This document shows positions 9,809 to 45,884 of a stretch of DNA of 45,894 nucleotides, in pieces. How positions within the stretch are numbered: the first letter of the stretch is position 1; each line of letters begins with the position of its first letter. The notes under the pieces were generated by a model, which saw nothing but the letters and a program-made list of their open reading frames with translations, was not told the DNA's origin and searched no databases. The translations under genes and the position numbers were made by a program. The DNA lies in contig JAQUYN010000012.1 of NCBI GenBank assembly GCA_028691835.1, positions 1 through 45,894 on the forward strand, in the 5' to 3' direction. Origin of the DNA: Alphaproteobacteria bacterium (GTDB lineage: Bacteria > Pseudomonadota > Alphaproteobacteria > UBA9219).

Positions 9809-10138
9809 ATGTTCAAGAAATCAGTCCTTATTTTGTCTTCTGTTCTGGCGCTTGCCGCCTGTTCATCAGCACAGCCTCGGATCATTCAAGCAACAGCTGG
9901 TATGCCCGATATTCGTGTCACAGTCGGTATGGCCACGCAAATTGAAATGCCGGATTCGGGTCGTGTTCAATCTATCGCGATTGGTGACCCGTCTCTTGTA
10001 TCTGCCGAACAGGCAACAGATGTGGTCAGTATTATTGCCAAGGGCAGTTCTGGCGAGACAAACCTGATTATTCGCTCACGCGATGAAGATGGGGACATTA
10101 ATGTCTATCAGTATCGTGTGATCGTTCAGGCGCGATAA
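9809..10138 (+). CDS. Small lipoprotein with pilus/secretin N-terminal-like domain, 109 aa
   Basis: The ATG at 9809 has a strong GGAGG at 9799-9803. The signal MFKKSVLILSSVLALAAC gives a lipobox Cys at residue 18. The mature part follows the pattern of the T2SS/T3SS pilus-secretin N-terminal domain (as at the N-terminus of CpaC/RcpA). It has VTVGMATQIEMPDSGRVQSI, then IGDPSLVSAEQ, VVSIIAKGSSGETNLIIR and D-G-D. Here the domain stands alone with no secretin barrel. It starts 65 bp after the exporter permease on the same strand and could be a periplasmic or outer-membrane accessory of that exporter, or an independent gene. The family call is from pattern recognition and is moderately sure. Confidence 0.75.
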   Translation: MFKKSVLILSSVLALAACSSAQPRIIQATAGMPDIRVTVGMATQIEMPDSGRVQSIAIGDPSLVSAEQATDVVSIIAKGSSGETNLIIRSRDEDGDINVYQYRVIVQAR

Positions 10139-10181
10139 TTCTTGCGCGGTCTCTTCAGAAGTCTCGTGCGTTGACCAAGCT

Positions 10182-10305
10182 AGAGCGTTTCCCGATAAGG
10201 TTGTCGCCTCGTTGACTGCGTGCTGCCGCTCTATCTTATTGTTTATCGATCCGATTCACGCGAACGCTTGGCGCAAAAGGCGTCAACCTTATCGCGATCT
10301 GTTCC
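10182..10305. repeat. Dispersed inverted repeat, copy A
   Basis: The arms CGATAAGGTTGTCGCCT (10193-10209) and AGGCGTCAACCTTATCG (10278-10294) are complementary at 16 of 17 positions. The centre, CCGCTCTATCTTATTGTTTA followed by GATTCACGCGAA, recurs at about 22.7 and 25.4 kb. It lies between genes and carries no open frame of note. Confidence 0.8.
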
Positions 10306-10402
10306 AAGTTCCATACATAGGGACCCCTTTGTGGTCAGCTTTTTCTCGATCTATACCCCTCGCACATCAAGAGTTGGTCATTTTGAGCCGCATCCTCCCT
10401 TA

Positions 10403-10513
10403 GCGTCATCCCGTGCTTGACACGGGATCCAGCGACCTGCGTCCGCAGGTCATATGAGTCTTATGCCGCGTGGACACGTGGCTCTGGATCCCAGATCAAG
10501 TCTGGGATGACGC
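10403..10513. repeat. 111-bp palindromic intergenic element with four internal hairpins
   Basis: The ends pair over about 30 bp (GCGTCATCCC at the left, GGGATGACGC at the right). Each arm also folds on itself: CCCGTG-cttga-CACGGG on the left and CCCAGA-tcaag-TCTGGG on the right. The middle holds two more small hairpins, GACCTGCG-tc-CGCAGGTC and CCGCGTG-ga-CACGTGG. Elements starting with GTCATCCC...GGGATCC are a common repeat type in alphaproteobacterial genomes (known type, recognised by eye). Confidence 0.85.
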
Positions 10514-10847
10514 AAAAGGAGAGGCCTGCCGGTGAAATATCTGTAGAGGTTCTCTTGGCATAACGGGACCATAAAAACCTACTCTTGAAGTACGAGCGGT
10601 ATATTTTCGGCGTGGTGAGTTTTGTTCAAAAGTTGCTTGGGCGGATATGGCTTTGCGTTTTTTGTCCAAGGGTGAGGGGGTGAACACTTGACCCGGCAAT
10701 TTTGACCTAGTTCGGCATTTTTGTAAGGCGAATAATATATATATTACAATTGGTTCGTTCGTGTGTATCATGGCATGGATGTTGCTTATCCACAGGTGTA
10801 CTTGTCTTATCATCATCTCATCCTCTGTGGGAGAAGGAGCTTACCCT

Positions 10848-11720
10848 ATGCGTGCGAAGCTGTCTTGTTATGCAAACTTTGCGCATACACATGCGCCAGC
10901 TATTGGCGCAGGGCTTGTGGTTTTGCTTGTGGTCATTTCGGTGATGCTGGGGTCACATAGCTTTTTGGCCATTTTTAATATTGAAGGTTTGTTGATCGTT
11001 GTGGGCGGCGTCATCGCAGCGGCTTATATGAGCTATAATACCGAAGACGTGAAGACGGCTCTTAATACGATACGTAATCTTTTCAAAAAAACGCAGTCTC
11101 AGCAAATAGACCTTTCCCGAGACATGATGGCGATTATTTATTGCGCACGTCTTCTTAGAGAAAAAGGGATGAGAAGTCTTGAAACGGTTATTTCAAAAAG
11201 CGGGTTAACGGACCCTTTCGTCAAGTATGGGTTGAATATGGCGGTCAGCGAATATCCTGCGCAAGATGTGCGCGATATGATGGAGACTGCTGTTGAAGCA
11301 ACTTATGAGCGAGACAGTCTCCCTGTCGATGTTCTGCAAAGTATGGCAAGCCACGCGCCCGCGTTTGGCATGGTTGGCACGTTGGTGGGGATGGTAATTT
11401 TGCTATCTAACTTTAATGGCGATATGTCGAGCGTTGGATCGAGTCTTGGTGTTGCCTTTCTTTCTACGCTTTATGGCGTTTTGTCGGCGCGTATGGTCTA
11501 TATGCCAGCGGCCTCTAAGTTGCGGCAAGAAGTGGATCATCGGCGCTTCCGTAATTATCTAATTACGGAAGGGATCGTAATGCTCGCAAGCGAAAAGACG
11601 CCGATGTATATTCAGGATCGGTTAAACAGCTTCCTTCGTCCTGACGCTCATAATTATCTTAATGTTCTAAACCAAAGTGAGCCTGATCATTCCTCTCTTC
11701 GCGTGGCTCAGTTCGCATGA
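10848..11720 (+). CDS. motA: Flagellar motor stator protein MotA (PomA-like), 290 aa
   Basis: The ATG at 10848 is preceded by GAAGGAG with a 9-base spacer. The open frame extends upstream to 10761, but that part lacks family similarity. Four membrane segments are visible. Two are near residues 17-35 and 40-60, and two are near 150-200. The second pair contains the ion-channel motif HAPAFGMVGTLVGMV and a following GVAFLSTLYGV. The cytoplasmic loop between carries the charged residues that contact the rotor. It forms the stator with MotB, encoded by the next gene with a 4-bp overlap. No other flagellar gene is in the window. Sodium or proton use cannot be decided from the sequence alone. Confidence 0.9.
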   Translation: MRAKLSCYANFAHTHAPAIGAGLVVLLVVISVMLGSHSFLAIFNIEGLLIVVGGVIAAAYMSYNTEDVKTALNTIRNLFKKTQSQQIDLSRDMMAIIYCARLLREKGMRSLETVISKSGLTDPFVKYGLNMAVSEYPAQDVRDMMETAVEATYERDSLPVDVLQSMASHAPAFGMVGTLVGMVILLSNFNGDMSSVGSSLGVAFLSTLYGVLSARMVYMPAASKLRQEVDHRRFRNYLITEGIVMLASEKTPMYIQDRLNSFLRPDAHNYLNVLNQSEPDHSSLRVAQFA

Positions 11721-17493: not shown

Positions 17494-17660
17494 TTAACTC
17501 ATACCAGCGGGCCTATGAACGGACTCATTGAAAGGGCCGCTCTCAATCACTCGCTCTGCGCCTCGCGATCCTCTTGCCGGACGGAACGCCTTGCGCCTAA
17601 AGGAGAGGACTATCCGGCGAGGGAATATCTCCTCGCACCGCTCGTGACCCGAAGAGGTTG
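17494..17660. repeat. Intergenic repeat region containing a 20-bp motif shared with the window's right end
   Basis: Positions 17547-17566 hold a GC-rich 20-mer (TCACTCGCTCTGCGCCTCGC) that occurs with one mismatch at 45805-45824 and, on the other strand, with two mismatches at 45727-45746. A partial inverted repeat, TTGCCGGA / TCCGGCGA, follows within about 55 bp. Boundaries are approximate. Confidence 0.5.
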
Positions 17661-22636: not shown

Positions 22637-22670
22637 TCATTCTTTGCCGCAGGTATGTCAAGAGTTTAGC

Positions 22671-22791
22671 GCGGTTTTGGAATAGGTTGACGTATAGGTG
22701 GGGCGAGACAACCGCTCTATCCTATTGCTTATCGAGCAGATTCACGCGAATGCTCGGCGCAAGAAGGTGCCAACCTGATCGCGATCTGCTT
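22671..22791. repeat. Dispersed inverted repeat, copy B
   Basis: The core CCGCTCTATCCTATTGCTTA followed by TCGAGCAGATTCACGCGAATG matches copy C (25.4 kb) closely and copy A (10.2 kb) somewhat less. The outer arms are reduced to GGTTG / CAACC in this copy. Confidence 0.8.
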
Positions 22792-22961
22792 TAAGAAATG
22801 GGAGTTGGTCTATCGCTATAACTTTGCATTGCAGCATAAAACGGCTGGAAAAAAGTAGCGGGCGCGATTAGTTTTCATTGGTTGATGCGCATGTTTTATG
22901 CGAACGGATCCCGAACGAGAGCCAGACAATAAGCCGCCCAGCTAAATGAGAGCCTGCAGAA

Positions 22962-25242: not shown

Positions 25243-25741
25243 GTGAAGAGATGGCTTTTCTAGCCTATGCGGTGCTGTTGGTGCAAGCTTTGAATCTTTT
25301 TGTCGTTGTGAATAGATTATATCATTATAGAACAATAGTTTGGCGGGGCCAATCTCGGGCGGTTTTTGAAGTGGTTGGCGCATCGTTGACTGCCTGCAGC
25401 CGCTCTATCCTATTGTTTATCGAGCAGATTCACGCGAATGGCTGGCACATAAAGCCGCCAACCTCATCGCTATCTGTTCTAGAATAAATGGACGATAACA
25501 GGAGGGGGGGGGCAGAGTTTACCCGCGCATCGGCTGGGTGGGGATTGTTTCTTTTTGTATAATCATTTGATTTTGAACCAGCTTTATTCCTTCGCTTGCC
25601 AGATAGGATGCTTGTCTGAATGAAGGTGGGGCAGGTTAACGACTTGTTTTCTCTTGCCTGATATGACGGATGATGGTGGGAACTTTTCGTTCATGACGTA
25701 AGGGTTCTGTTTCGTGTGGCTTAAACATCCAAGATGTTCAG
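25243..25741. other. 499-bp intergenic region, repeat copy C, no gene seen
   Basis: It contains the dispersed repeat at 25359-25480 and a run of nine G at 25504-25512. The ~60 bp before the pseudokinase start at 25742 hold no clear ribosome-binding site and no recognisable promoter. Short open frames overlap the repeat and are not supported. Confidence 0.65.
25359..25480. repeat. Dispersed inverted repeat, copy C
   Basis: Core CCGCTCTATCCTATTGTTTA followed by TCGAGCAGATTCACGCGAATG, nearly the same as copy B. The outer arms GGTTGGCG (25373-25380) and CGCCAACC pair perfectly, and TCGTTGACTGC is shared with copy A, so this copy links the two others. Confidence 0.82.
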
Positions 25742-45670: not shown

Positions 45671-45726
45671 GTTGTGAATAATATCAACCTGCGGATGAAA
45701 GCATCCCTATAGATCACGAGAGGATA

Positions 45727-45824
45727 GCGAGGCGCAGAGCGAATGAGTAAAAACAACGCCACCAGTGATACCAAGAAACGCATGAACGGAACGCAAGCCC
45801 AACATCACTCGCTCCGCGCCTCGC
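45727..45824. repeat. Palindromic repeat with 20-bp arms
   Basis: Arms 45727-45746 (starting GCGAGGCGCAGAGCG) and 45805-45824 (ending CGCGCCTCGC) pair at 18 of 20 positions around a 58-bp spacer. The arm sequence also occurs at 17547-17566. No gene is seen from 45616 to the window end apart from the terminator and this repeat. Confidence 0.6.
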
Positions 45825-45884
45825 AGGACGCTTGCTGGGCTTCACCCTTGTTTGTAATTTCTTTTCCGCTCCAGCGAGCGTCCT
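45825..45884. repeat. Adjoining inverted repeat at the window edge
   Basis: AGGACGCTTGCTGG (45825-45838) and CCAGCGAGCGTCCT (45871-45884) pair at 13 of 14 positions. The element begins directly after the right arm of the previous palindrome and may continue outside the window. Confidence 0.55.

What the first reader, a model, noticed from the sequence alone, without database searches (positions are those of the whole stretch)
10403..10513. Four-hairpin palindrome with compensatory base changes between its arms
The two ends pair over about 30 bp except at two triplets. There the left arm has GTG/CAC and the right arm AGA/TCT. Each pair of triplets is complementary within its own arm, so the small arm hairpins are preserved while arm-to-arm pairing is lost. 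This covariation suggests selection for the local hairpins, for instance as RNA structure or as a protein-bound DNA hairpin, rather than for one long stem.
Basis: seen in the sequence. Interest (0 to 1): 0.52.

Follow-up and report, generated by a model that had tools for sequence, protein, structure and literature searches.

The report
CGTC-type palindromic repeat pair

Summary
In detail: 10403-10513 is a 111-bp palindrome whose arms differ only in two triplets (23 of 29 positions identical), each triplet pair complementary inside its own arm. It matches the published CGTC-tagged REPs (PMC3733652): a head-to-head heterodimer with two further hairpins in its spacer. It lies inside a 252-bp element with TATA-ended inverted repeats (10352-10603). 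In 273 arms from 235 loci, with the triplets left free, 28 triplet pairs occur and 83% of their cells are Watson-Crick (41% shuffled). Partner arms put real base pairs at the four highest covariation scores. New detail: 52 of 68 hairpins behind such arms carry a GTCN loop on 40 different stems, usually before a GANTC site. In this genome 4 of 15 arms carry uncompensated triplet changes. No wobble bias argues for RNA (17 G-T against 21 A-C). No mobilising enzyme was found. Best reading: a non-autonomous hairpin repeat recognised as folded DNA, here a passenger in a TA-target MITE.

The parts
10352..10603 (.). whole repeated unit: element with TATA-ended terminal inverted repeats that carries the palindrome as its core
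   Evidence: 252-bp copies or near-copies on other contigs with different flanks: C23 98% over 252 bases, C76 88%; TIR pairing
10352..10378 (+). left terminal inverted repeat TATACCCCTCGCACATCAAGAGTTGGT
   Evidence: TIR pattern: 32 matches within 3 mismatches in the own genome, 0 for the reversed control
10577..10603 (-). right terminal inverted repeat TATACCGCTCGTACTTCAAGAGTAGGT
10404..10432 (+). left CGTC-type REP arm: tag CGTC, 8-bp stem ATCCCGTG/CACGGGAT, loop CTTGA, tail CCAG
10434..10451 (+). left inner hairpin, stem GACCTGC/GCAGGTC, loop GTCC
10452..10464 (.). linker with GAGTC (10456-10460), a GANTC methylation-type site
   Evidence: CcrM gene in the own genome
10465..10482 (-). right inner hairpin, loop GTCC when read on the minus strand (GGAC on the plus strand)
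10484..10512 (-). right CGTC-type REP arm: tag CGTC, stem ATCCCAGA/TCTGGGAT, loop CTTGA, tail CCAG

Best explanation
The palindrome is a head-to-head heterodimer of CGTC-tagged REP hairpins whose spacer holds two more hairpins and a GANTC site. It is a non-autonomous repeat. Shown here: the anatomy, the copies, the covarying stems, the constant CTTGA and GTCN loops, and its position inside a 252-bp element with TATA-ended inverted repeats that occurs at different places in this genome. Inferred: the short hairpins, unpaired tag and constant loops are read as folded single-stranded or cruciform DNA by an enzyme acting in trans, in the manner of REP/RAYT systems, and this constraint kept stems paired while their sequence changed. 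Also inferred: in this genome the unit now spreads mainly as a passenger of the outer TA-target MITE and individual copies decay.
For: CGTC tag, 8-bp stem beginning with AT, 5-nt loop, CCA tail and head-to-head order match the text of PMC3733652. [quoted passage not shown] tumefaciens spacers can hold two stem-loops. Triplet covariation, partner arms and 11 aligned elements. 52 of 437 distinct arms are followed by an inner hairpin with loop GTCN, against a mean of 0.3 and at most 2 in 30 shuffles of the tails; GANTC follows within 16 nt in 36 of 52. Composite copies in own contigs C23, C76 and C98 within TATA-type inverted repeats; other inverted-repeat elements of 129-275 bp lack the arms. 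GTCN half-units in 10 related genomes, with TIRs close by in only one of them, so the core exists without the MITE.
Against: No enzyme identified: no Y1_Tnp (PF01797) in the own genome, none in 18 of 37 arm-bearing genomes, and no Y1 locus flanked by an arm pair among the 30 inspected. The one DDE_3 match in the own genome has no matching inverted repeat. The long stem, not four separate hairpins, is the lowest-energy fold. 7 of 15 own-genome arms carry unpaired or wobble positions. Templated correction of near-palindromes could also create matched changes.
Confidence: 0.6

Rival explanations
1. RNA element: the hairpins are transcribed with the upstream gene and stabilise or end its message, and selection for RNA pairing produced the compensated changes.
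For: Lies between two genes on the same strand, a pilus N-terminal-domain gene and motA; very stable as RNA, z -8.6; PMC3733652 reports that REPs lie mostly downstream of genes and favours RNA roles.
Against: No excess of wobble pairs (17 G-T against 21 A-C; 12 against 10), though the test is weak in dimers. No terminator-like site at the element. Rfam has no match. The tag starts 265 bp beyond the upstream stop codon. Few copies in this genome.
Confidence: 0.2
2. No selection on structure: matched changes arise by templated correction of near-palindromes or by exchange of whole arms between repeats, so the covariation is mutational.
For: Arm types differ at all three triplet positions at once; 44 of 90 distinct arms are perfect and 37 have one mismatch; own-genome triplet changes are uncompensated in 4 of 15 arms; recombined or collapsed cores exist, such as the C143 copy.
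Against: It does not explain why the inner loops stay GTCN on 40 different stems, a feature that was not in the search patterns.
Confidence: 0.3
3. Cell-cycle methylation element of the CIR kind: the hairpins present the GANTC site to CcrM or to proteins that read its methylation.
For: Length 109-111 bp, two arms and linker, GAGTC in the linker; GANTC follows the inner hairpin in 36 of 52 half-units but lies in the matching stretch of 33 of 385 other arms; a CcrM gene is in the own genome (NF050803, 536.5 bits, cut by the contig end). CIR as described in PMC2229807.
Against: GANTC is absent within 16 nt of 16 of 52 half-units; the CIR consensus was not available; no functional data.
Confidence: 0.15

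Closest known systems
CGTC-tagged REPs, head-to-head dimers (Di Nocera et al. 2013, PMC3733652)
   Same: CGTC tag, stem beginning with AT, short loop, CCA tail, head-to-head order, heterodimers, complementary stem changes, cross-phylum spread, no dedicated transposase
   Different: The paper's text does not mention GANTC or methylation; its passages read here do not state a constant GTC loop in the spacer hairpins. Its Figures 2 and 4 were not seen. It reports H. neapolitanus CGTC-1 dimers inside 41-bp palindromes and GTAG-15 dimers of A. variabilis inside TATA-ended palindromes; I saw no CGTC dimer described inside a TATA-ended element.
CIR, Caulobacter CcrM-associated intergenic repeats (Chen and Shapiro 2003, seen only through PMC2229807)
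   Same: About 110 bp, two arms, linker, GANTC, alphaproteobacterial
   Different: No sequence of CIR1-CIR4 could be compared; the published fold places GANTC at a terminal loop, here it is in the linker between hairpins.
REPINs with RAYT transposases (GTAG REPs; passages of PMC6006769)
   Same: Tag plus hairpin, inverted pair, non-autonomous
   Different: Tag is CGTC, no RAYT in this genome, arms not paired around Y1 genes.
TA-target MITEs of the IS630/Tc1-mariner kind (recalled knowledge)
   Same: 252-bp unit, 27-bp inverted repeats, TATA at both ends in most copies
   Different: No transposase with matching ends was found in this draft genome.

Membership tests
CGTC-tagged REP | unpaired CGTC (or TGTC, CCTC) at one end | tested here: met
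   10404-10407 and, on the minus strand, 10512-10509
CGTC-tagged REP | stem 8-9 bp with AT at the first two positions, loop 4-5 nt, CCA tail | tested here: met
   8-bp stem, loop CTTGA, tail CCAG in both arms; by stem and loop length this fits CGTC-2 in the paper's text, figure consensus not seen
CGTC-tagged REP | repeated in the genome, mainly as head-to-head dimers | tested here: met
   15 arm matches within 3 mismatches; 3 full-length dimers
CGTC-tagged REP | no association with a transposase gene | tested here: met
   no PF01797 in the own genome; arms within 3 of 30 Y1 loci, none as a flanking pair
CIR | sequence similarity to CIR1-CIR4 | not testable with these tools
   original paper not held
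CIR | about 110 bp, two arms and a linker, GANTC site | tested here: met
   109-111 bp, GAGTC at 10456-10460; GANTC in the linker, not in a terminal loop
RAYT-mobilised REPIN | GTAG-type tag | tested here: not met
   tag is CGTC
RAYT-mobilised REPIN | RAYT gene in the genome flanked by the repeat | tested here: not met
   the draft is 93.6% complete
TA-target MITE (outer element) | terminal inverted repeats and TA at both ends | tested here: met
   TATA at both ends in most paired copies, one end degenerate in C76, C145, C96, C123, C143 and C28
TA-target MITE (outer element) | shares ends with an autonomous IS630-type element | tested here: not met
   one DDE_3 fragment, best end match 9 mismatches; draft genome
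Known structured RNA | match to an Rfam family | tested here: not met
   0 matches up to E = 1 in window 9901-11100

The most novel reading that the evidence does not exclude
Each half of the palindrome is a two-hairpin recognition module in which stems may be almost any sequence but the tag (CGTC), the loops (CTTGA or GAAR outside, GTCN inside) and usually a GANTC site are constant. It would be the DNA substrate of an undescribed mobilising enzyme that reads folded DNA, perhaps timed by CcrM methylation, which would answer the open question of what moves CGTC repeats.
Probability: 0.15. Interest if true: 0.7.

Novelty: new member of a known kind. Interest (0 to 1): 0.38.

Why it matters
CGTC repeats occur in many alphaproteobacteria and in distant phyla, yet have no known mover or function. 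A module with free stems and fixed loops gives a concrete substrate to test for binding and cleavage. It also warns that paired changes in bacterial palindromes need not mean RNA structure.

Tried and rejected
RAYT as the mover: PF01797 absent from the own genome, found in 19 of 37 arm-bearing genomes. Of the 30 Y1 loci made from that search, 3 hold an arm in reach and none is flanked by an arm pair. I did not run the class background for PF01797, so association is untested; presence in about half says little.

IS630 transposase with the same ends: one partial DDE_3 match, no matching ends.

Wobble asymmetry as a test for RNA: no bias. I judged it weak because a dimer shows each arm in both orientations.

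Intrinsic terminator: none at the element. Rfam: nothing.

Literature: searches. I read passages of PMC2229807 (one section in full), PMC3733652 (abstract, background, the GTAG and CGTC family sections, part of the discussion, passages), PMC2267715, PMC12306157 and PMC6006769 (passages). The primary CIR paper is not held. RIME1 and Bru-RS repeats are lookalikes that I recall; no sequence was compared. In these searches I saw no statement of the GTC-loop rule, but the figures of PMC3733652 were not available.

Rows left out: only loci from L131 on; L188, L201 and L347 passed the filter but have inner loops other than GTC and were dropped, leaving 15. Of those 15, 11 of similar length went into alignment A1; L203, L208, L243 and L309 were left out for longer spacers. 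L260 has no GTC loop on its left side. One search covered 77 chosen loci, not all. The full-length model finds plain two-arm dimers too, so the 22 of 385 genomes are not all four-hairpin carriers.

Full report
What is there. The palindrome at 10403-10513 is as described. Counted from the CGTC tag, the two arms agree at 23 of 29 positions and differ only at the two triplets. It folds far better than shuffled sequence (z -8.6). It consists of left arm, inner hairpin, a 13-nt linker with GAGTC, inner hairpin, right arm. It lies between a pilus N-terminal-domain gene and motA/motB, all on the same strand.

It is larger than reported. The conserved unit runs from 10352 to 10603 and has 27-bp inverted repeats with TATA at the outer ends. 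In the own genome 32 places match the end pattern within 3 mismatches, none match the reversed control. Copies in C23 (98% over 252 bases) and C76 (88%) have different flanks. Other elements with the same ends, 129 to 275 bp long, contain no CGTC arms by the test used. The core is thus a passenger in a MITE-like unit. In related genomes most cores have no such ends nearby: of 52 half-units with a GTCN hairpin, 11 had an end within 7 mismatches nearby, 8 in the own genome and 3 in one relative, G002.

Covariation. In the loci held from L131 on there were 273 arms in 235 loci with 28 distinct triplet pairs; 70 of 84 cells were Watson-Crick, 7 G-T, 3 A-C, 4 other. Shuffling partners gave 41% (sd 4.6%, maximum 58% of 2000) against 83% observed. 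Hosts named include alphaproteobacteria, Coxiellaceae, SAR324, Nitrospirales, betaproteobacteria, Patescibacteria-type lineages and Uabimicrobium; many are metagenome bins, where misplaced contigs are possible. Partner arms, whose triplets were not selected, gave 56 distinct sequences, 399 of 448 stem cells Watson-Crick, and the four highest corrected covariation scores all fell on base pairs. That partner set was limited to at most 6 mismatches to the pattern.

The inner hairpins. Eleven four-hairpin elements aligned in A1 (three of them from this genome) give 89% paired cells against 69% shuffled, 21 of 32 pairs changed on both sides, covariation 0.515 against 0.171 shuffled and at most 0.080 when slid. 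All 16 pairs of the two inner helices have a change on both sides; paired cells there are 77.6%, partly because an alignment gap sits on one side of the stem. Among 437 distinct CGTC-type arms in the loci held, 68 are followed by a 4-nt-loop hairpin, and 52 of these loops are GTCN with 40 different stems; shuffled tails gave a mean of 0.3 and at most 2. The loop was not part of any search pattern, although the own-genome and relative loci came from searches with the whole window core. This makes it the cleanest sign that shape plus loop, not stem sequence, is what is kept. The same inner hairpin follows arms with GAAA and GAAG loops (14 of 52). GANTC lies within 16 nt behind it in 36 of 52. 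The R1 model of the element matched 22 of 385 class genomes at E up to 1e-9, many of them as plain two-arm dimers.

Against the reading of selected local hairpins. The lowest-energy fold remains the long stem, -63.9 against -48.1 kcal/mol as RNA and -32.3 against -29.0 as DNA. In this genome 4 of 15 arms have an uncompensated triplet change and 8 of 15 stems are fully paired. Both arms carry identical triplets in 32 of 82 dimers, against 19.6 expected, so arms are not independent. Templated correction of near-palindromes, which I know as a general mechanism and did not test, could create matched changes. Mismatch types show no RNA-like bias (17 G-T, 21 A-C).

Known kind. The text of PMC3733652 describes CGTC-tagged REPs with the tag, stem, loop and tail seen here, head-to-head heterodimers, complementary stem changes, two stem-loops in the spacer of A. 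tumefaciens dimers, and the lack of a dedicated transposase. By stem and loop length the window arms fit its CGTC-2 class. PMC2229807 describes CIR repeats of about 110 bp with GANTC, arms and a linker; the primary paper was not available. The own genome encodes a CcrM-like methyltransferase, cut by a contig end: NF050803 at 536.5 bits, below its cut-off of 830.

Mechanism. The most likely account is a non-autonomous repeat whose folded halves are recognised by a trans-acting enzyme, now carried about in this genome by the outer MITE. The first step is inferred; the carriage is supported by copies with different flanks but no insertion event was seen. No enzyme was found: no PF01797 match in the own genome, none in 18 of 37 arm-bearing genomes, no arm-flanked Y1 gene among 30 loci.

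Verdict. A real feature of a known kind, with one detail that I did not find in the papers read: the constant GTCN loop on freely varying inner stems.

Noticed in passing
window 10175-10308, 22661-22795, 25349-25483: A second dispersed repeat, about 134 bp, three copies in the window, with inverted ends 10190-10209 and 10278-10297 (90%); similar sequence stands beside other elements in C56 and C69.
   Followed up: no
window 17546-17580, 45719-45746 (inverted), 45804-45838: A third dispersed repeat (ATCACTCGCTCTGCGCCTCGC...), also next to or inside inverted-repeat elements on other contigs.
   Followed up: partly
L071 and L130 (G000:C123 about 80434-80890): A copy of the core is split in its linker by another element at a TA.
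   Followed up: partly
L112 (G000:C143:11433-11619): A 187-bp copy in which the four-hairpin core has collapsed into one mixed remnant, as expected of an unstable palindrome.
   Followed up: partly
L386 about 1645 (-): A TGTC-tagged arm lies within the stretch matched to a Y1 transposase gene in a deltaproteobacterial bin, with the frame open.
   Followed up: no
L423 3-1010 (-): CcrM-like methyltransferase next to an ORF that looks like RNase HII (recalled from its sequence, not scanned) in the own genome.
   Followed up: partly
L163, L168, L169, L175, L195 and others: The same 28-nt arm pattern occurs in genomes and bins of many phyla, which suggests horizontal spread or binning errors.
   Followed up: no
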